Assembly: GCA_947259685.1 (NCBI GenBank)
Contig: CAMYNC010000161.1
Span: forward strand, 1 to 7,505
Direction of reading: 5' to 3'
Length of the DNA: 7,505 nt
From: an uncultured Desulfuromonadales bacterium
GTDB taxonomy: Bacteria; Desulfobacterota; Desulfuromonadia; Desulfuromonadales; Geopsychrobacteraceae
How positions within the stretch are numbered: position 1 is the first letter of the stretch; every line of letters begins with the position of its first letter. Below the pieces are notes generated by a model. That model saw only the letters and a list, made by a program, of their open reading frames with translations, was not told the DNA's origin and did not search any database. The translations under genes were made by a program, and so were the position numbers. Of the stretch, positions 400 to 7,505 are shown piece by piece.

Positions 400-1389
400 T
401 TACCAGAATGCTGAGAATCCCAAAGCGAAGGTGTCTGAATCCATGCCGGTAGATTCCTGGGTGCGGGTGCCGATGTACGCTACCTTAACGCCCAAGTGAC
501 GATTGATGGGAAGACCGAAGCTTAACGCCCAAGCCAGGTTCTGCTTTCGATCGTTCTTTTTTACCTCATCTACAGTGGATCTCCCTCCATAGTTATAGCC
601 GGCACTTGCACCCGCCCAGACTCCCGGTCGGAAGGTATAAATCAGATGGCCGTGAATTGCGTAGAGCGGATCCTGCTCGAGTTTTGATTCGTTAAAAAAC
701 TCATCGTTGTCGGAGTATAAAACGATCATTCCTGTTGCTTCCATCGACCATTTCCCACGCGTGTGAACTAGCCCTAGTTGGGGTCGGAAGGTGAACCGAT
801 TTGTACCGAGATTAATCAGCTTATCGTCCATGTATTCACCGGTCGGTAACTGTACTGAGAATCCCGCACCAACAATGGTTTCAACCTTCTTCGACGCTCG
901 GTATGCAGCGTATTCCTTGCCCTGCAGCGGCGGGGCACCGTACAGGTTGACTGCAAAGCGCAACACTGTGTCGGTCCAACCATCCCTATGGACCGTCTTG
1001 GGAGCGCCGTCAAGTAGTCCAGACCAACGTCCCTTCTGGTGGGCTTGCAGGAGTCCGATCCTTGCCGTTTTCTCGAACAATGAAAATGTCCGGATGAATT
1101 TCGCCGCCCAGGTATGCATTTCCATCTGCGCATCTTCGATCTTGAGGACAGGGGAAAAGCCAATGTCCGCATCGGTGTAGGCATATGCAGCACCGGCAAA
1201 GGTTGTGTTGATCGGAAGATGCGTCCAGCGCCTGGGTTCTAGCTCCTCAGCTAGGCATGGAGATGCAAAAACTAAAACCAATGGGACGAGAAGACTGACC
1301 AGAAGAAAACTATTTATGAATTTGAAGAGGATAGCCAAACAACGATTCTTTTGTTGTCGTCCTGTTTTCAGCCCGTCCAAAAAACCCAT
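400..1389 (-). CDS. Outer-membrane beta-barrel protein, MetA-pathway phenol degradation transporter-like
   Basis: The product is 329 residues and looks like an exported outer-membrane channel of the Phenol_MetA_deg family, members of which are thought to pass hydrophobic or aromatic compounds. The basic N-terminus is followed by a hydrophobic stretch (about residues 17-43) and a plausible signal peptidase I site after Ala47 (PCLA/EELEP). The mature part shows alternating beta-strand patterns, the family-like block LPTGEYMDDKLINLGTNRF (181-199) and a C-terminal aromatic residue (FSAFW), the usual barrel-insertion signal. The frame is open to 1434 with ATGs at 1434, 1407 and 1389. I chose 1389 because it alone has a well-spaced Shine-Dalgarno (AAGGAG, 6 bases upstream). 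The n-region is still long for a signal peptide. The gene lies 239 bases downstream of the hydrolase and has its own promoter-like box, so it may be transcribed separately. The substrate is unknown. Confidence 0.8.
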   Translation of the reverse strand: MGFLDGLKTGRQQKNRCLAILFKFINSFLLVSLLVPLVLVFASPCLAEELEPRRWTHLPINTTFAGAAYAYTDADIGFSPVLKIEDAQMEMHTWAAKFIRTFSLFEKTARIGLLQAHQKGRWSGLLDGAPKTVHRDGWTDTVLRFAVNLYGAPPLQGKEYAAYRASKKVETIVGAGFSVQLPTGEYMDDKLINLGTNRFTFRPQLGLVHTRGKWSMEATGMIVLYSDNDEFFNESKLEQDPLYAIHGHLIYTFRPGVWAGASAGYNYGGRSTVDEVKKNDRKQNLAWALSFGLPINRHLGVKVAYIGTRTQESTGMDSDTFALGFSAFW

Positions 1390-1395
1390 CCTCAG

Positions 1396-1401
1396 CTCCT
1401 T
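1396..1401 (-). promoter_or_regulatory. Ribosome binding site of the outer-membrane gene
   Basis: The minus strand reads TAAGGAGCTGAGGATG. AAGGAG is 6 bases before the ATG at 1389-1387. The upstream ATGs at 1407 and 1434 have no usable Shine-Dalgarno: at 1434 an AGGAA directly abuts the ATG, which is too close. This site therefore decides the start. Confidence 0.75.
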
Positions 1402-1414
1402 AGCCATGATTTCA

Positions 1415-1451
1415 ATTATAAATAAAAAGTCCATTTCCTGAGGACAGGAAA
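1415..1451 (-). promoter_or_regulatory. Candidate promoter with overlapping dyad, outer-membrane gene
   Basis: A perfect TATAAT lies on the minus strand at 1420-1415. It would start transcription near 1408 and give a short leader of about 19 bases carrying the Shine-Dalgarno. No good TTGACA lies 16-18 bases further upstream. In that place is a perfect 7-bp inverted repeat, TTTCCTG (1434-1440) AGGA CAGGAAA (1445-1451), centred around -35. This arrangement suits a promoter with a regulator bound at or near -35. The TATAAT and the dyad are seen directly; promoter activity is inferred. Confidence 0.4.
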
Positions 1452-1628: not shown

Positions 1629-2411
1629 TTAAGTAAGTTTTTGCAGAAAATCAGTGAAGGTCTGCAGCGTCTTAGTTGGCTGATCGCGGAAGGGAGAATG
1701 CCCGCAGTCGGGCAGGAGGGTCAGTTCTACTTCCCCTAACAGATGATCTTGGATTTTTTTCAGTTGTTTGATCGTCCCATAGTTATCCAATTCACCCTGA
1801 ATCAAAAGGACTGATATCTCAATCTTTACCAGGTATTCCTCCAGGTTCCAATCCAGAAAATCCTTATCCAACCAGGCTTGATTCCAGCCCCAAAACGCAC
1901 AGCCGACATTGTCGCCATGATAACGGGTCAGTCGTTGGCGCAGATCGGTATTTTCAAAAGCGATTTTGGCTTCACGAATACTCGCCAAGGTGAGTTCTTC
2001 AACAAATACGTGCGGGGCCATCAGGATCAAGCCCTGGATGCGCTCGTCGGAGCAGCCTCCTGCATTGATCAGGGCGATGGACGCTCCGTCGCTGTGTCCC
2101 ACCAGGACAGCCTTCTGGACTCTGGCAGCATTGAGGATTTGCGGCAGGACAACGAGGGCTTCGTCGTGCATGAAGCTTAAGGGGCGTGGCAAAGGGCAGG
2201 GGGTTGAGTTTCCGTAGCCTGCCCGGCTGTAAATCAGCACCGGGCAATCGGTTGCCCTGGCGACCAGACGCGGAAAATCCTTCCACATGGCGACACAGCC
2301 AAGCCCTTCGTGCAGGAAAATTAACGTCCGATCCTTGCTCTGGGCGGGCGTGAGCAGCTGATACTCCAGCTGCAGCCCTTCGATGTCGAAAAAGCCGTGC
2401 TCTTCATGCAA
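1629..2411 (-). CDS. Alpha/beta hydrolase
   Basis: The product is 260 residues, a usual length for a single-domain alpha/beta-fold hydrolase, and has no signal peptide, so it is cytoplasmic. The catalytic triad is visible: nucleophile Ser107 in the elbow GHSDG (105-109), acid Asp209 in QGELDNYG, and His238 in DCGHSPF. An oxyanion-loop motif LHEGLG lies at 33-38, and a Trp-rich lid (about 140-195) sits before the acid. Such enzymes cleave esters, thioesters or C-C bonds; the substrate cannot be read from the sequence. The start is TTG: there is no in-frame ATG nearby, GGAGG lies 12 bases upstream, and the family homology (FFDIEGLQLEY) begins at once. The gene begins 8 bases after the AOR stop, so the two are probably translationally coupled and may act in one pathway. 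Confidence 0.88.
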   Translation of the reverse strand: MHEEHGFFDIEGLQLEYQLLTPAQSKDRTLIFLHEGLGCVAMWKDFPRLVARATDCPVLIYSRAGYGNSTPCPLPRPLSFMHDEALVVLPQILNAARVQKAVLVGHSDGASIALINAGGCSDERIQGLILMAPHVFVEELTLASIREAKIAFENTDLRQRLTRYHGDNVGCAFWGWNQAWLDKDFLDWNLEEYLVKIEISVLLIQGELDNYGTIKQLKKIQDHLLGEVELTLLPDCGHSPFRDQPTKTLQTFTDFLQKLT

Positions 2412-2419
2412 TGGACAGT

Positions 2420-4744
2420 TTATCCTCCGGAAACGTAGGAGATCAGACTGATCTCGCTGCCGTTGGGAATTTCGGTCTGGTCTTCGCCGGCCAGGATCAT
2501 CTTGTCGTTGATGACGATATTAAGGTTCGGATCATCCAGGAGCTGATTGGCTTCGGGCAGTTGGCGTCGCAGCAACTGACGCAATTCGGTAAGGCTGGCG
2601 ACCTGCTCATCGACGATGAGGCTCTGTTCCGGAGCGCCGGGCAGCGGGCAAGGGAATTTGATCTTAATGCTGTAGCCGGTGACAACCTGCGAGAGCTGAC
2701 TGTGCCAGTTAAGTGCCGGAACCCCTTCGCGGTTGAGTCCGGTTAGCTGGTAGAAGCGCTGCTTGAGTTCACTGAACTGCTCCCGGTCGATTTTTTCTCC
2801 CTTGAAGGGGCCAACCTTGATCGGTTCATCGAACCAGCGCTTCGGTAGGCTATCATCCTGCTCCCGCAGCCCGAAGCGGAAATTGAGCATCCGTTCCAGC
2901 CCGGTGATGTTACGGCCGATTTCGTCCAGTTGTTCGGCGTCAAACTGCAACTGAGTGAGTTCGCTTAACTGGCTGGCAAAGTCCTCCAGATCGGGGGTTG
3001 AGGGTGAGTTGAACAATTTGGTGTTGAAGCGACACATGCCGACCGCATCACCGACGGCAAAGGTATTTTCGCAGCGCCGCACAGCGTACTCCTTGCCTTC
3101 ATAAGAGGTCGGTTCGGGGGAGACCACGCCGCCGTAAAGGGCGGTCTTGAACGCAGCGTCATCGTTGATCCGAGCGTTGATCTCCAGGGTGACCCGGTTG
3201 CGCAGGTGATCCATGCCGCGGGTAGAAACCGCCAGCCCTAAGGCGAAGGCTTTGAGTATCCGTGCATCGTGGGGATCGGACTGAAACAGTCCCTTGGAGG
3301 CCATGCTGTATTTAAGGGCCTCGACCGGGTATTTGCCCTGTTCGACTGCACGGCTGGAGGAGGCGATGGTGTCACCGAAGCCTTCTCGTTTGGCGGTCAT
3401 GAACAGCAGCTGTTCAATGACTGGATAGTTCCCCCAGGTTAGCTCCAGGCCGCCGGTGATCTGCTGATCGATGATGCCGCGCTGGTAGAGCTCCATCGCC
3501 CAGGCGATGGCACTGCCGGTGCTTGAGGCATCAAGGGCCAGGTCGTTGAGGATGTTGTTCAGCCGCAGCACCTGCTCCGGTTCTTTGATGCCGATATTCG
3601 GGCCGAACTTGCCGACGGTGATGTATTCGGGGCCTTCCCCCTTGTCATATTTGTCGAATCTGCCGTCGTTGTTGATGCCGTTATAAGTCCGCTGCTTGTG
3701 ATGTTCGAGGGTGCTCTGCTGTTTATCGTAGCTGGCGTTGCCGTTGACGCCGGTCAGCGCGCTGGCGCCCCAGCCACCTTTGCCACCGGGGAGCATGTCG
3801 TTATTGGCACGGCAGCAGACCGGGCACTTGTAACAGCCGCTCATTCCCGGACGATAGGGGTCGAAGTTGTCGGCGTCGAGGCTGTCGTGCCAGGTGGTTT
3901 CCTGATTGTTCTTGGTCCCCATGGCGCCGAGCACCCGACTTGGTTTGTAGAGAAAAGGGGTGCCAACCTTTTTCAGCGCGTTCTGCACCACGCTGGCTGC
4001 GAGGATTTTTTTACCGATCTCCCGGTTCTTCTGCTTGTAGGCGTCAGAAAGATCAAATTCCGGCAGCTTGCCCTGGATGAGGATCGCCTTCAGCTGCAAC
4101 GCGCCCATCTTGGCGCCACCACCACCACGCGCCCAGATCGCTTTTTCCCCCGCCATGATGCCGCTGCAGAGCACCCGGTTTTCGCCGGCGCTGCTGATCC
4201 GTGCCATCGCCATATCTTTCCGCTCATGACAGTCGAAATCCCGCTCGATCGCCGCGGTGAATTCGATGTTGTCCATGCCGCGATAGGGGCTGGCATCAAC
4301 AAAGTCGACCTGTTGTTGCTCGATCTTAAGCAGTGTCCACTGCGGGTTGCGACCATAGAGCACCAGGTGGTCGTAACCTTGACGTTTCAGATAGCTGGGA
4401 AGGAAGTCTCCGGCGTTGCTGTCGAGGATCGCCTGGCTCTCCGGTGAGCGGCTGGTGACGTTGCCGCGGGTGGCGGCAGGCATGTTGCCGGTCAGAACTC
4501 CAGCACCGAAGATCAGTGGCACTTCGGGATCGAGGGCATCTTTTTCTTCCTGCAGCAGGTTGTAGAGCAGGTACATGTTGCCGCCCCGTCCGGCCAGAAA
4601 GTGTCGTGTCGCCTCAAGTGGCAGGTACCCGCGCTGGCAGCTGCGCTGTGCGAGGTCAACAAACAGCACCGCACCCTGAGTCGGGTATTGAGGTTCTGCA
4701 TGCATTCGGTTGAGAAGTCTTGTAACCCGCTGTCTGATATCCAT
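2420..4744 (-). CDS. Aldehyde:ferredoxin oxidoreductase family protein with C-terminal MoaD/ThiS domain
   Basis: The 774-residue product is a tungstopterin enzyme of the AOR family, whose members interconvert aldehydes and carboxylates using low-potential electrons. The pterin-binding N-terminal part (to about 220) shows AGRGGNMYLLYN (51-62), TGNMPAATRG (85-94), SSAGENRV (184-191) and ARGGGGAKMG (205-214). The [4Fe-4S] ligands are complete: C304-x2-C307-x3-C311 plus C571 in DAVGMC. Other family blocks are GPEYITVGKFGPNIGI (371-386), LDASSTGSAIAWAMELY (404-420) and STRGMDHLR (507-515). The AOR part ends near 685. Residues 692-774 form a beta-grasp MoaD-like domain ending VSGG. The protein is far longer than a standard AOR (about 600 residues) because of this tail and an insert between C311 and GPEY. 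GAGG lies 5 bases before the ATG. No ferredoxin-like partner subunit is in the window. BamB-type or YdhV-type functions remain possible, so the substrate is open. Confidence 0.92.
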   Translation of the reverse strand: MDIRQRVTRLLNRMHAEPQYPTQGAVLFVDLAQRSCQRGYLPLEATRHFLAGRGGNMYLLYNLLQEEKDALDPEVPLIFGAGVLTGNMPAATRGNVTSRSPESQAILDSNAGDFLPSYLKRQGYDHLVLYGRNPQWTLLKIEQQQVDFVDASPYRGMDNIEFTAAIERDFDCHERKDMAMARISSAGENRVLCSGIMAGEKAIWARGGGGAKMGALQLKAILIQGKLPEFDLSDAYKQKNREIGKKILAASVVQNALKKVGTPFLYKPSRVLGAMGTKNNQETTWHDSLDADNFDPYRPGMSGCYKCPVCCRANNDMLPGGKGGWGASALTGVNGNASYDKQQSTLEHHKQRTYNGINNDGRFDKYDKGEGPEYITVGKFGPNIGIKEPEQVLRLNNILNDLALDASSTGSAIAWAMELYQRGIIDQQITGGLELTWGNYPVIEQLLFMTAKREGFGDTIASSSRAVEQGKYPVEALKYSMASKGLFQSDPHDARILKAFALGLAVSTRGMDHLRNRVTLEINARINDDAAFKTALYGGVVSPEPTSYEGKEYAVRRCENTFAVGDAVGMCRFNTKLFNSPSTPDLEDFASQLSELTQLQFDAEQLDEIGRNITGLERMLNFRFGLREQDDSLPKRWFDEPIKVGPFKGEKIDREQFSELKQRFYQLTGLNREGVPALNWHSQLSQVVTGYSIKIKFPCPLPGAPEQSLIVDEQVASLTELRQLLRRQLPEANQLLDDPNLNIVINDKMILAGEDQTEIPNGSEISLISYVSGG
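2423..2428 (-). promoter_or_regulatory. Hydrolase ribosome binding site inside AOR Gly-Gly codons
   Basis: The minus strand reads TCC GGA GGA TAA at the end of the AOR gene. GGAGGA is at once the last two glycine codons and a strong Shine-Dalgarno for the TTG start at 2411-2409, with a spacer of about 12 bases. Ribosomes ending the AOR gene would sit on the hydrolase start region, which favours coupled translation. Confidence 0.7.
2423..2671 (-). other. MoaD/ThiS-like beta-grasp domain at the AOR C-terminus
   Basis: Residues 692-774 of the AOR protein match the plan of the sulfur carrier MoaD: a first strand SIKIKFPCP, a helix LTELRQLLRRQLPEA (718-732), then NIVINDKMI (742-750), which matches MoaD's conserved V-N-x-x region, then IPNGSEISLISYVSGG (759-774), which parallels MoaD's DGDEV...PPVTGG ending. 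The Gly-Gly is the extreme C-terminus, directly before TAA, as required for adenylation and thiocarboxylation by MoeB/ThiF-type enzymes. Whether it is activated in this fusion is unknown. Confidence 0.82.
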
Positions 4745-4795: not shown

Positions 4796-5452
4796 TCACT
4801 GAGATCGCTCCGCATCGGCCCCGAAATCACCGCCAGTGTTATCTCCGAGCAGCTTAGGGCTGTATTTTTGGTAGGTGGCAGTAATCTCCGCAAAGGGAAC
4901 ATCGGCAAAGAAGCCGCGCTCATGGACATATTCCATATGCTTGCGCTGATCGGCATCGAAAGGATGGAAAATCGAATCCTCACGACCGTTGAATTCGAGC
5001 GGCATGACCCGGAACCTGTTGCAGAGTTCCAGATTGAAAGCCGGGGTCGCTTTGACCCAGACACCCTCCAGATAGAGTTCACTGAAGGCATGCCAACGGA
5101 ACAGGTCGCCGCCATTCAATTCGCTTAATCGGGGAGTGTTGAGATGGTTCTGCACATCGGCGAACCCGAGACGCGAAGGAATGCCGACGACACGGCAGCA
5201 AGCTGCCAGCAGCGCAGCTTTGGATATACAGAAGCCATAACGGTTGTGCAGGACCTTGCTGGCCCGGTAGGTATCTGGATCGCTAAAATCGAGATAGGGC
5301 GTGTAACTGATCTCGTCGCGGATTCGATAATAGAGGGCCACCGCTTTTTGCCGAGTGGATTGCGCAGGGTCGACCGTTGCTTTGGCGTAGGCCTGAATGA
5401 TAGCGGCATCGCTATCGACATATTCAGCGCTCTGAAGAAATTGCGGATCCAT
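4796..5452 (-). CDS. Transglutaminase-like (papain-fold) domain protein
   Basis: From the chosen start the product is 218 residues with no signal peptide. It carries a transglutaminase-like core: Cys75 in YGFCISKAALLAAC, the usual nucleophile at the start of a helix, and His121 in WHAFSELYLEG. The third residue, normally Asp in a WVxxDP-like strand, appears to be Thr136 (WVKATPAFN). Family members act as cysteine proteases, amidases or acyltransferases; I cannot name a substrate. The frame is open to an ATG at 5500, which would add 16 residues and overlap the UspA gene by 22 bases. I prefer 5452: it has an A-rich leader with AAGAGG 11 bases upstream, the 5500 ATG has no Shine-Dalgarno, and the DPQFLQSAEYVDSD opening looks like a natural N-terminus. 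The gene lies 26 bases after UspA and 51 before the AOR gene. Confidence 0.82.
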   Translation of the reverse strand: MDPQFLQSAEYVDSDAAIIQAYAKATVDPAQSTRQKAVALYYRIRDEISYTPYLDFSDPDTYRASKVLHNRYGFCISKAALLAACCRVVGIPSRLGFADVQNHLNTPRLSELNGGDLFRWHAFSELYLEGVWVKATPAFNLELCNRFRVMPLEFNGREDSIFHPFDADQRKHMEYVHERGFFADVPFAEITATYQKYSPKLLGDNTGGDFGADAERSQ

Positions 5453-5463
5453 TCGCCACGAAG

Positions 5464-5469
5464 CCTCTT
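5464..5469 (-). promoter_or_regulatory. Ribosome binding site that decides the transglutaminase-like start
   Basis: The minus strand reads AAAGACAAGAGGCTTCGTGGCGAATG. AAGAGG is 11 bases before the ATG at 5452-5450 and lies in the gap after the UspA stop. The in-frame ATG at 5500 is preceded by UspA codons without a purine-rich site. Confidence 0.5.
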
Positions 5470-5478
5470 GTCTTTTGT

Positions 5479-5904
5479 TTAAAATAACAATATCGGACAT
5501 TTAGCGTTACGGATAAGGGCGTTAGCGACCGAGCCGAACATCATGTCGCGAAAGCCACCGCCACCTGGGTGTCGGCCGATAATCACTAACTGAACCTGTT
5601 GTTCAGCGATGACTTTCAGGATTTCTTTGCCGGGCGGTCCCAGTTCAAGTAGCAGCTGCGGTTCAAAACCGGCCGCAAGAAAAGGTTCAGCCAGTTTTGC
5701 AAGGATGCGCTTGCCCGATTTTTCCGCTGCCTCGTAAACCATTTTTTTCTGGATGTCGGGAACCAGGCGCTGGACAAGATGCACATCAACCACATGCAAC
5801 AGCATGATCTCACGCGGCATCAGATCTTGGTTGGCGATGATGGCATCAATCGTATGCTGGGCCGTTTCCGATTCATCGATTGGGATCAGTATTCTTGGTT
5901 TCAT
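5479..5904 (-). CDS. Universal stress protein, UspA family
   Basis: The 141-residue product is a single-domain UspA protein, a cytoplasmic nucleotide-binding dimer in this family. Visible features are the N-terminal strand and Asp of RILIPIDESE (4-13), the LLHVVDVH strand (35-42) and the C-terminal phosphate-binding loop. That loop reads G110-RHP-G114-9 residues-G124-S125, against the usual G-2x-G-9x-G-S/T, so the first spacing is one residue longer and the loop is glycine-rich (GGGG, 114-117). ATP binding is therefore likely but not certain. AGGAG (5915-5919) is 10 bases before the ATG. The gene starts 22 bases after the TRAP permease. A UspA protein encoded with a TRAP transporter has a precedent in TeaD, which regulates ectoine uptake by TeaABC, and a similar role is inferred here. 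Confidence 0.9.
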   Translation of the reverse strand: MKPRILIPIDESETAQHTIDAIIANQDLMPREIMLLHVVDVHLVQRLVPDIQKKMVYEAAEKSGKRILAKLAEPFLAAGFEPQLLLELGPPGKEILKVIAEQQVQLVIIGRHPGGGGFRDMMFGSVANALIRNAKCPILLF

Positions 5905-5926: not shown

Positions 5927-7213
5927 TTAGCCGTAAACCAGGCGCGGTAAGAAGAGCACCAGGTCAGCCCAATAGGTCAAAATCAGCAGGATTCCGATCT
6001 GAATCATCAGAAACGGCATGACCGCCTTCGAGACGTAAAGCAGGTTGCGGTCGACCGCCGCTCCAGAAATATAGAGGCTGACACCCAAGGGTGGAGTGCA
6101 GTAGCCGATCCCCAGGTTGATAGTCATCAGCAGCCCAAAGTGCATGGTATCGATGCCGAAGGAAGCGAGCAGCGGCAGAAAGATCGGCGTCAGGATCAGG
6201 GTGGCCGAGATGATATCCATGAACATGCCGACCACCAGCAGCATGATATTCACTGCCAGCAGGAACACCCAGGGAGAGGAGATCTGGCTGACCACGGCCG
6301 TGGCGATCTTATCCGGAATTTGTTCAAAGGTCAGGTACTCACCGAAGACCGAAGCTCCGGCGACAATCACCAGCAGGGTCGCTGAAGTGACCGATGATGC
6401 TACGATGACTTTTTTAATGTCTTGGAATTTCATATCCTTGTGGATGAAAACCTCGACAAAAAATGCATAGAAACAGGCCACCACCGCTGCTTCGTTGGCA
6501 GTAAACATCCCGGAATAGATTCCGCCGAAGATCAGCAGCGGCAGGCACAGCGCCCAGATGCTCTCTTTGAGGACCGCGATAACTTCCTTAAAATTTGGCC
6601 GATCGAGAGTCTTGTAATTTCTGCGTTTGCAGTAAAAGTAAGCGTACAGGCTCATTGCCCCCATGATCATGATTCCCGGGATAAAGCCGGTCAAAAACAG
6701 GGCTTCAATCGGGTCGTTACTGACCATGGCGTAAAGGATCATCGCGATCGACGGCGGGATAATGATGCCCAGGTTCGGGGCGGTGGTCATGATGCCGACG
6801 GAGAACTTTTCGTCATAGCCGTTTTCGATCAGTGCCGGAATCATGAAGCCGCCGATGGCGACCACGGTGGCGACCGTCGAGCCTGAGATGGCCCCGAAGA
6901 AGCCGCAGGCCAGGACGCCGGCCATTGCCAGCCCGCCCGGCAAAAAGCCGACCAGGGCATTGGCGGTCTTGATCAGCTTATGCACGATCGTGCCGGTGGT
7001 CATGATGTTGCCGCAGAGGATAAAGAACAGCACTACCACCAGGGCAAACTTATCCATGCTGCGGTAGAGCACTTCGATGACAATCTGCGGATCGATGCCG
7101 ATCATGAAGACCAGGCCGACGGTGCCGGTAAAGAACACCGCCATAAAGACCGGCACGGTCGAAGCGAGCAGTCCGAGCAGCAAGAACAGGATTATCAGGT
7201 AGCTGGAGTCCAT
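5927..7213 (-). CDS. dctM: TRAP transporter large permease, DctM family
   Basis: The 428-residue product has the normal length and character of a DctM subunit, the inner-membrane transport domain of a tripartite ATP-independent periplasmic transporter, which uses ion gradients to import mostly organic acids. It is hydrophobic along its whole length with about a dozen membrane segments. The two family signature regions are present: GAISGSTVATVVAIG (107-121) followed by TTAPNLGIIIPPSIAMILYA (143-162), and LGIGYCTPPLGVSLYISG (367-384). The N-terminus is a membrane segment directly after the ATG, so the start is natural, though its Shine-Dalgarno is weak (GGAT about 5-9 bases upstream). It lies 44 bases downstream of the small permease gene. 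The substrate cannot be read from the permease. Confidence 0.95.
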   Translation of the reverse strand: MDSSYLIILFLLLGLLASTVPVFMAVFFTGTVGLVFMIGIDPQIVIEVLYRSMDKFALVVVLFFILCGNIMTTGTIVHKLIKTANALVGFLPGGLAMAGVLACGFFGAISGSTVATVVAIGGFMIPALIENGYDEKFSVGIMTTAPNLGIIIPPSIAMILYAMVSNDPIEALFLTGFIPGIMIMGAMSLYAYFYCKRRNYKTLDRPNFKEVIAVLKESIWALCLPLLIFGGIYSGMFTANEAAVVACFYAFFVEVFIHKDMKFQDIKKVIVASSVTSATLLVIVAGASVFGEYLTFEQIPDKIATAVVSQISSPWVFLLAVNIMLLVVGMFMDIISATLILTPIFLPLLASFGIDTMHFGLLMTINLGIGYCTPPLGVSLYISGAAVDRNLLYVSKAVMPFLMIQIGILLILTYWADLVLFLPRLVYG

Positions 7214-7257: not shown

Positions 7258-7505
7258 TCAATTGACAGCCTCCTCCTTCCAGTCTTCGACCATGACAAGC
7301 AGGGTGCGGAAAAACATCATCACTCCCATCGTTGGCAATACGGCATAAAAAATCCATTCGGGAACCTGCAGGCTGGCGGTCCGGGCGTATTCATCCTCAT
7401 ACATCATCACAGTCATCGTCCAGCCGAGATAAACCATCGCTCCGGCAAAGATCAGTTTTGCTGTGTGGGAGAACATCGCCAGATATTTTTTCAGCCCAGG
7501 GACCA
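7258..7505 (-). CDS. dctQ: TRAP transporter small permease, DctQ family (partial, 5' end outside window)
   Basis: Only the C-terminal 81 residues are present. The frame is open through the right edge (VPGLKKYLA precedes the internal Met at 7476), so that Met is not the start. Two membrane segments are visible, AKLIFAGAMVYLGWTMTVMM and WIFYAVLPTMGVMMFFRTLL, separated by a short polar loop. A membrane segment beginning with a 'VPxWxxYxxLP'-like entry near the C-terminus is typical of DctQ. A full subunit is about 160-190 residues with four segments, so roughly half is missing. It pairs with the adjacent DctM in the membrane. The periplasmic binding protein gene is expected beyond the right edge. 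Confidence 0.85.
   Translation of the reverse strand, partial: VPGLKKYLAMFSHTAKLIFAGAMVYLGWTMTVMMYEDEYARTASLQVPEWIFYAVLPTMGVMMFFRTLLVMVEDWKEEAVN

What the first reader, a model, noticed from the sequence alone, without database searches (positions are those of the whole stretch)
2420..4744. Tungsten AOR fused to its own MoaD-like tail with a free Gly-Gly end
Standard AORs are about 600 residues and have no sulfur-carrier domain. Here a full AOR with all four cluster cysteines is followed by a complete beta-grasp MoaD/ThiS-like domain ending exactly in VSGG-stop. MoaD donates sulfur to the pterin dithiolene that holds tungsten or molybdenum, so the enzyme may carry the sulfur donor for its own cofactor. 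The tail could also be a dedicated carrier for a small sulfur pathway, or a ubiquitin-like handle. A Gly-Gly kept at the very end argues that it is chemically used rather than a relic.
Basis: partly seen in the sequence, partly recalled or inferred. Interest (0 to 1): 0.8.

Follow-up and report, generated by a model that had tools for sequence, protein, structure and literature searches.

The report
Tungsten oxidoreductase with built-in sulfur carrier
One gene encodes a tungsten-enzyme relative that carries, as its own tail, a small sulfur-carrier protein whose chemically important end is kept in its relatives; the arrangement was first noted in 2006, but it offers a direct way to find out what these carriers do for tungsten enzymes.

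Summary
One uninterrupted 774-residue gene (2420-4744, minus strand) has an AOR/WOR body and a C-terminal MoaD domain ending in Gly-Gly-stop. It is no frameshift: 78 of 79 copies compared end in GG; the other is cut by its contig. All four glycine codons occur at both positions, so the protein end is under selection. The architecture is not new: Iyer, Burroughs and Aravind reported it for Azoarcus in 2006, under tungsten-cofactor biosynthesis. New here: the fused enzymes form one clade in Desulfuromonadales, Beta- and Gammaproteobacteria, with a 53-residue insert and without the catalytic glutamate of characterised AORs, so aldehyde oxidation is unproven. None of 37 fused genes shows a second ThiS-family gene within 4 kb (some contigs end sooner); 56 of 104 unfused homologues do. 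In Desulfuromonadales none of 23 genomes with the fusion has a recognisable MoaE, the usual MoaD partner. Best reading: a dedicated sulfur carrier (a fused 'WorX') that matures this enzyme's own metallopterin cofactor. Charging of the tail and the receiving step (dithiolene or terminal ligand) are inferred.

The parts
2420..4744 (-). WOR/AOR-MoaD fusion gene, 774 codons plus stop
   Evidence: 78 genome loci with the gene
4070..4672 (-). AFOR_N domain, residues 25-225
   Evidence: Pfam PF02730 E 1e-46
2699..4024 (-). AFOR_C domain, residues 241-682, with C304, C307, C311, C571
   Evidence: Pfam PF01314 E 6e-88; cysteines in all 20 fused proteins aligned
3647..3805 (-). 53-residue insert (residues 314-366) of the fused clade; 3-18 residues there in 40 unfused homologues
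   Evidence: alignments (22 unfused; 18 unfused)
3620..3622 (-). Ile375 codon, at the position of catalytic Glu313 of P. furiosus AOR
   Evidence: phmmer alignment to 1aor, residues counted by hand, and MAFFT
2423..2671 (-). MoaD-like beta-grasp tail, residues 692-774
2423..2428 (-). terminal Gly773-Gly774, stop codon at 2420-2422
   Evidence: invariant in 78 of 78 intact copies, all four Gly codons used
1629..2411 (-). alpha/beta hydrolase gene, 8 bases downstream of the fusion; its cluster lies near the fusion in 9 of 15 Desulfuromonadales loci
4796..5500 (-). transglutaminase-like protein, 51 bases upstream; cluster recognised in 8 of 15 Desulfuromonadales loci and 0 of 64 others
5479..5904 (-). 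universal stress protein (Usp); cluster in 6 of 15 Desulfuromonadales loci
5927..7213 (-). TRAP transporter large permease DctM; cluster in 12 of 15 Desulfuromonadales loci
7258..7503 (-). TRAP transporter small permease DctQ, cut by the window edge

Best explanation
The gene product is a WOR-family metallopterin oxidoreductase with a dedicated MoaD-type sulfur carrier fixed to its C-terminus: the fused counterpart of the separate 'WorX'/MoaD genes beside many WOR genes. The likely working: an E1-like MoeB/ThiF enzyme encoded elsewhere adenylates Gly774; a cysteine-desulfurase or rhodanese system turns it into a thiocarboxylate; the tethered carrier then gives sulfur to the pterin cofactor destined for the same polypeptide, most likely at the dithiolene-forming step. 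Tethering gives one carrier per enzyme and steers the cofactor to this apo-enzyme. Shown here: fusion, MoaD fold, GG conservation, one clade, no separate ThiS-family gene seen near the fusion. Inferred: activation, thiocarboxylate, the acceptor, and tungsten rather than molybdenum. The reaction of the body is probably ferredoxin-linked chemistry on an aromatic or 2-oxo-acid-derived compound, not proven aldehyde oxidation.
For: GG invariant in 78 of 78 intact copies with GGC/GGA/GGG/GGT all used at both positions, while the rest of the tail averages 67% column identity and only 8 of 91 tail columns are invariant in 50 tails. Tail fold is that of MoaD. 0 of 37 fused genes has another ThiS-family gene within 4 kb, against 18 of 26 and 38 of 78 unfused AFOR_C genes in the same two genome sets. 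6 of 18 nearest unfused relatives have a separate MoaD-like gene ending in GG 553-1046 bases downstream, a plausible pre-fusion state; three of the six (L155-L157) are near-copies. Fused bodies are one side of a branch, 100/100. In print: separate ThiS-like WorX predicted to act in pterin biosynthesis, exact function unknown (PMC13328260, passages); AOR-adjacent MoaD proposed for W cofactor (PMC1779556, passages); in T. [quoted passage not shown] All 20 genomes hold ThiF-family genes (MoeB was not told from other ThiF-family members).
Against: No ThiF-family gene lies on the fusion's contig in 20 of 20 genomes. 16 of those 20 genomes also have MoaE, in 12 of them with a ThiS-family gene directly beside it by coordinates (8 fetched), so molybdopterin could be made without the tail. 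In the 3 Desulfuromonadales genomes of that set no MoaE was found, so the textbook partner of a MoaD is missing there. The tail profile is closest to canonical MoaE-adjacent MoaD, not to the AOR-adjacent carriers. 48 of 104 unfused homologues have no ThiS-family gene within 4 kb, so a neighbouring carrier is not required, and at least 6 of the 37 fused genes lie within 4 kb of a contig end. In T. kodakarensis all three Ubls can serve AOR and FOR, against strict pairing. The tail changes 1.8 times faster than the body. I found no biochemistry of a fused member. The genome-profile statistics are not corrected for kinship.
Confidence: 0.55

Rival explanations
1. The tethered carrier delivers a terminal sulfido ligand to the tungsten (a maturation-by-sulfuration role like that of XdhC or FdhD), not the dithiolene sulfurs.
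For: In C. autoethanogenum AFOR sulfide adds to reactivation by ferredoxin and Ti(III), and the authors discuss a hypothetical axial sulfido ligand and a sulfurase-like gene nearby (PMC12727526, passages). Genomes with a MoaE-adjacent MoaD still keep AOR-adjacent carriers or the fused tail, which suggests a job beyond general molybdopterin synthesis.
Against: Sulfide alone did not activate that AFOR. Known terminal sulfurases are not MoaD-like (recalled). The 2025 review describes oxygen ligands on W in AOR (PMC12096430, passages). MoaD chemistry as known makes the dithiolene.
Confidence: 0.15
2. The tail is a general MoaD that happens to be covalently attached: it serves the cell-wide molybdopterin pool with MoaE and MoeB.
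For: The tail profile is closest to MoaE-adjacent MoaD; GG is kept.
Against: 12 of the first 20 genomes have a ThiS-family gene directly beside moaE already; the 23 fusion-bearing Desulfuromonadales genomes have no recognisable MoaE; the tail occurs with one enzyme clade.
Confidence: 0.1
3. The tail is a ubiquitin/SAMP-like handle for conjugation or turnover of the enzyme.
For: Archaeal MoaD/ThiS-type Ubls double as protein modifiers (PMC11323500). In Desulfuromonadales a transglutaminase-like gene is near the fusion in 8 of 15 loci.
Against: That gene cluster was recognised in 0 of 64 other loci although GG is equally conserved there. A handle on a 774-residue enzyme would make the whole enzyme the modifier. 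No JAB or E2-like family was among the hits shown for the 14 neighbour representatives scanned.
Confidence: 0.05
4. The tail is a structural or docking domain (for example for ferredoxin), and GG is kept for packing or by chance.
For: Beta-grasp domains are often docking modules (recalled); no direct evidence of activation exists.
Against: The last three residues have pLDDT under 50, unlike a packed end; the two terminal columns are both fully conserved whereas 6.7% of the other tail columns are.
Confidence: 0.15

Closest known systems
AOR-MoaD fusion of Azoarcus (Iyer, Burroughs and Aravind 2006, PMC1779556)
   Same: MoaD fused C-terminal to AOR; listed under tungsten-cofactor biosynthesis. 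Aromatoleum/Azoarcus proteins found here are 68-69% identical over all 774 residues.
   Different: That paper gives one genus and says 'might be fused' in the text; no GG conservation, clade, active-site or MoaE analysis of the fusion was in the passages read. The identity of its protein with the hits here was not checked by accession.
WorX, ThiS-like gene beside WorL genes (PMC13328260)
   Same: MoaD/ThiS-type carrier tied to WOR-family enzymes; 'exact function is unknown', predicted pterin biosynthesis.
   Different: WorX is a separate gene and is described as not a subunit; here it is part of the same chain. The word MoaD does not occur in that text, and its only use of 'fused' concerns ModBC.
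Characterised AORs: P. furiosus AOR (1aor), A. aromaticum AORAa (8c0z), A. mobile bifurcating AOR (9mqx)
   Different: 604-616 residues with no tail; P. furiosus Glu313 is Ile/Val here, Tyr427 His492, Tyr452 Arg517; no 53-residue insert. Thr243 and His448 equivalents are kept (Thr262, His513).
E. coli MoaD (molybdopterin synthase small subunit, 1fm0_D)
   Different: Stand-alone 81-residue protein working with MoaE; here fused, and MoaE is not recognisable in the 23 Desulfuromonadales genomes with the fusion.

Membership tests
WOR/AOR family (large subunit WorL) | AFOR_N and AFOR_C domains | tested here: met
   both far above cut-off
WOR/AOR family (large subunit WorL) | four [4Fe-4S] cysteines | tested here: met
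   C304, C307, C311, C571 in all 20 fused proteins aligned
WOR/AOR family (large subunit WorL) | tungsten-bis-molybdopterin bound | not testable with these tools
   needs purified protein
aldehyde oxidoreductase (AOR sensu stricto) | second-shell residues Thr243, Glu313, Tyr427, His448 (Pf numbering; listed in PMC12096430) | tested here: not met
   T262 and H513 kept; Glu313 is Ile/Val375 and Tyr427 is His492, a change also reported for one AOR
aldehyde oxidoreductase (AOR sensu stricto) | aldehyde oxidation activity | not testable with these tools
   no assay
MoaD/ThiS sulfur carriers | beta-grasp fold of MoaD | tested here: met
MoaD/ThiS sulfur carriers | free C-terminal Gly-Gly | tested here: met
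   78 of 78 intact copies
MoaD/ThiS sulfur carriers | E1-like activating enzyme in the genome | tested here: met
   ThiF family in 20 of 20 genomes with the fusion, on its contig in none; the window's own genome is not held
MoaD/ThiS sulfur carriers | C-terminal thiocarboxylate formed | not testable with these tools
   needs mass spectrometry
canonical molybdopterin synthase small subunit | MoaE partner encoded in the genome | tested here: inconclusive
   MoaE in 16 of 20 mixed genomes, in 0 of 23 Desulfuromonadales genomes with the fusion; a very divergent MoaE could be missed and the window's own genome is not held
WorX (ThiS-like companion of WORs) | separate gene close to worL | tested here: not met
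   here it is the same reading frame; it may work like WorX, it is not a separate gene

The most novel reading that the evidence does not exclude
[quoted passage not shown] The fusion would be the frozen form of a mechanism that separate WorX carriers use in trans.
Probability: 0.07. Interest if true: 0.88.

Novelty: new member of a known kind. Interest (0 to 1): 0.52.

Why it matters
What the WOR-associated ThiS-like carriers (WorX) do is stated as unknown in a 2026 classification paper, and how Geobacter metallireducens gets a working molybdoenzyme without MoaE was stated as unknown in 2009. A natural single-chain fusion fixes the carrier-to-enzyme pairing at 1:1, so removing two glycines tests the carrier's role on exactly one enzyme without touching the cell's other carriers. 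The clade also lacks the catalytic glutamate of characterised AORs and has a large insert after the cluster motif, so it may have a different reaction.

Tried and rejected
Sequencing error or two genes: rejected, 78 of 79 copies in genome loci plus window and 119 of 120 other proteins of the homologue searches run through to the same GG end; the two sets overlap. Fusion on plasmids: 85 plasmid records matched; the 20 listed matches end at residue 685 or earlier and all 85 are under 60% identical. A longer fusion in L162 (frame open for 1351 aa): the upstream part is an open stretch with masked bases before the usual MDIREKVE start, not taken as a real domain. MoaE substitute beside moaC in MoaE-less genomes: in four regions (G082, G001, G015, G123) the frames beside moaC looked RadA-like and DksA-like, read by eye and not by profile, and nothing MoaE-like was noticed. 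Closest sequence relatives of the tail in the PDB: none at E 0.01 by profile, although the fold comparison is clear. The absence of other folds from the list is not used as evidence. The AlphaFold job used only 20 close sequences and gave a poor body (mean pLDDT 66.7); coordinates are not returned, so the distance from the GG end to the active site could not be measured, and I did not spend the second job. Comparison of carrier groups by hhalign is rough because the groups differ in size (50 tails, 11, 8, 7, 7 and 6 sequences). My first neighbourhood gene calling picked many antisense frames and was replaced; the second is also only heuristic, and cluster names rest on one representative each.

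Rows dropped: 77 locus tails plus the window's were available, 58 of the 77 remained after an 88% identity filter, and 49 of those 58 plus the window went into A3. Column identities used 76 of 78 intact copies without realignment, distances 71. The tree used 17 fused bodies (18 named, L070 was not in the set) and 22 unfused ones. In one search, 27 and 92 unfused matches were cut to 26 and 79 by a 900-base limit; G031:C309 was counted as unfused but is a fused gene cut by its contig, hence 38 of 78 instead of 38 of 79, and 56 of 104 in all. The 23 genomes with the fusion include two fragmentary cases (G090, a 97-residue stretch; G097, split over contigs) and G021, where the match is in two frames. 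One search lists only the best 120 of 1876 homologues, so weaker relatives were not inspected there. In my notebook I wrote 17 unfused relatives; the correct number is 18 (L145-L161, L163; L162 belongs to the fused clade and L164 is a 161-residue fragment).

Full report

Conservation. 78 genome loci with the gene were fetched. Of 79 main copies (78 loci plus the window), 78 end in GG; the other, L010, runs off its contig. Of 9 extra copies in the same loci 8 end in GG and one runs off its contig. Of 121 proteins from the homologue searches, the window's own among them, 120 end in GG, the exception being a 631-residue truncation; the two sets overlap. Both glycines use all four codons, so the constraint acts on the protein. 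Tail columns average 67% identity and body columns 80% (76 rows); the tail diverges 1.8 times as fast as the body but in step with it (r 0.86, 71 rows). That fits one old fusion inherited as a unit, and the tree of 17 fused and 22 unfused bodies puts the fused ones on one side of a branch at 100/100 (the tree has long branches). The gene is patchy: 4 of 399 genomes drawn from the order of Aromatoleum buckelii at E 1e-36, 23 of 136 in the order of Geothermobacter, fragments included.

What the body is. In two alignments (phmmer to 1aor, residues counted by hand; MAFFT) the residue at P. furiosus Glu313 is Ile or Val in all 20 fused proteins aligned. His448 is kept as His513, Thr243 as Thr262, Tyr427 is His492 and Tyr452 is Arg517. 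A 2025 review lists Thr243, Glu313, Tyr427 and His448 as conserved in most AORs and gives Glu313 and His448 roles in acid-base catalysis; it also names one AOR with His for Tyr427 (PMC12096430, passages). Residues 314-366 form an insert of 53 residues where 22 other AOR-family proteins have 3-18. A phylum scan (395 genomes) found the nearest unfused relatives at 35-49% identity over the best segment: 18 of them (L145-L161, L163) all lack Glu at that position (Ala, Gly, Ser or Thr), have 4-11 residues instead of the insert, and have no tail. Six of the 18 have a separate MoaD-like gene ending in GG 553-1046 bases downstream; three of these six are near-copies of each other. So the loss of Glu is probably older than the fusion, and a carrier gene near the enzyme is a plausible precursor of the tail. 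Against a simple fusion of such a gene: by hhalign the tail is closest to MoaE-adjacent MoaD (97-98%), then to these six (92-93%), to AOR-adjacent carriers of the Beta genomes (83-93%), and less to those of the Desulfuromonadales and to ThiS (group sizes differ).

Carriers and partners. In 20 genomes with the fusion, 0 of 20 fused genes and 18 of 26 unfused AFOR_C genes of at least 900 bases have another ThiS-family gene within 4 kb. In 19 Desulfuromonadales genomes it is 0 of 17 and 38 of 78. At least 6 of the 37 fused genes lie within 4 kb of a contig end, so a neighbour could be unseen there. ThiF-family genes occur in 20 of 20 genomes, on the fusion's contig in none. MoaE (PF02391) occurs in 16 of 20; the four without are Geothermobacter hydrogeniphilus, two Desulfuromonadales MAGs and a Rhodocyclales MAG. 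In 12 of the 16 a ThiS-family gene lies directly beside moaE by coordinates. Across 136 genomes of the Geothermobacter order MoaC is found in 119 and MoaE in 41 by either of two profiles; 81 have MoaC and no MoaE. Of the 23 genomes with the fusion none has MoaE, of the other 113 41 do (Fisher 1.2e-4, not corrected for kinship); one of the 23, G083, also lacks MoaC. Many are MAGs, but G082 has a 4.24-Mb contig of the same length as that listed for Geopsychrobacter electrodiphilus. A very divergent MoaE remains possible. The gap is known: the Geobacter metallireducens genome paper states that it lacks a moaE homologue and that how its nitrate reductase can function with an incomplete molybdopterin synthase is unknown (PMC2700814, passages); moaD and moaE were also not found in Thermotoga thermarum (PMC4148951, passage).

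Context. In the window the order is DctQ-DctM-Usp-transglutaminase-like-fusion-alpha/beta hydrolase, all on the minus strand with gaps of -22 to 51 bases. Clusters of DctM (12), DctP (11) and a small gene between them taken as DctQ without a profile scan (11) recur in 15 Desulfuromonadales loci, the window counted, and IorA/IorB-type indolepyruvate:ferredoxin oxidoreductase genes lie in 8 and 7 of those loci. In the other 64 loci a 2-oxoacid:acceptor oxidoreductase alpha subunit (29), a YfhL-type ferredoxin (18), its beta subunit (14), a MarR regulator (28) and a PaaK-family CoA ligase (27) recur within six genes, named from one representative of each cluster. This points to ferredoxin-linked metabolism of 2-oxo acids or aromatic acids; the substrate is inferred, not shown.

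Mechanism. Best reading: a dedicated carrier in cis that is charged by a MoeB/ThiF enzyme and gives sulfur to the enzyme's own cofactor. Shown: anatomy, conservation, one clade, lack of a separate carrier gene seen nearby. Inferred: charging, thiocarboxylate, acceptor, metal. Two literature points bear on the acceptor. [quoted passage not shown] In Clostridium autoethanogenum AFOR, sulfide alone gave no activity but raised reactivation by ferredoxin and Ti(III), and a sulfido ligand on W is discussed (PMC12727526, passages). The first leaves room for dithiolene insertion at the enzyme, the second for a terminal ligand. The Desulfuromonadales genomes without MoaE make the first question sharper, but the G. 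metallireducens paper takes its nitrate reductase to be functional without moaE, so a general route must exist there and the fused enzyme cannot be the only place of sulfur insertion.

Known or new. The architecture was printed in 2006: 'In Azoarcus, the MoaD is fused carboxyl-terminal to the aldehyde ferredoxin oxidoreductase', in the row on tungsten cofactor biosynthesis (PMC1779556, passages). Separate ThiS-like WorX genes and their unknown function are described in 2026 (PMC13328260, passages). Searches for discussion of the fusion (listings, with passages read in only some papers) showed me no further treatment in the held library, which lacks most subscription journals. I therefore file the finding as a new member of a known kind whose clade, conservation, active-site change and MoaE-less setting I did not see described.

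Noticed in passing
136 genomes of the order of G001 (Geothermobacter): 81 of 119 MoaC-positive genomes have no recognisable MoaE. Of the 39 genomes with a PF02391 match 31 have only weak ones (under 50 bits), a short divergent MoaE that lies directly beside moaC in the four cases compared by coordinates (G046, G053, G055, G072). The molybdopterin synthase large subunit of the 81 is unidentified.
   Followed up: partly
L145-L161, L163: A wider WOR subclade (613-746-residue frames, one 377-residue fragment; 35-49% identical to the fused body) lacks the AOR catalytic glutamate; its reaction is unknown.
   Followed up: partly
L029, L032, L033, L034, L038, L043, L044, L046, L063: Nine betaproteobacterial loci carry a second fused gene (some cut by the locus end) within a few genes of the first.
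   Followed up: no
window 4796-5500: Transglutaminase-like protein just upstream of the fusion, its cluster seen in Desulfuromonadales loci only; Cys and His motifs are visible by eye, the usual Asp seems replaced. A papain-like fold beside a ubiquitin-like tail may be a coincidence.
   Followed up: no
window 400-1434: Outer-membrane protein of the Phenol_MetA_deg family (Pfam E 1.5e-16), 194 bases beyond the hydrolase gene on the same strand.
   Followed up: no
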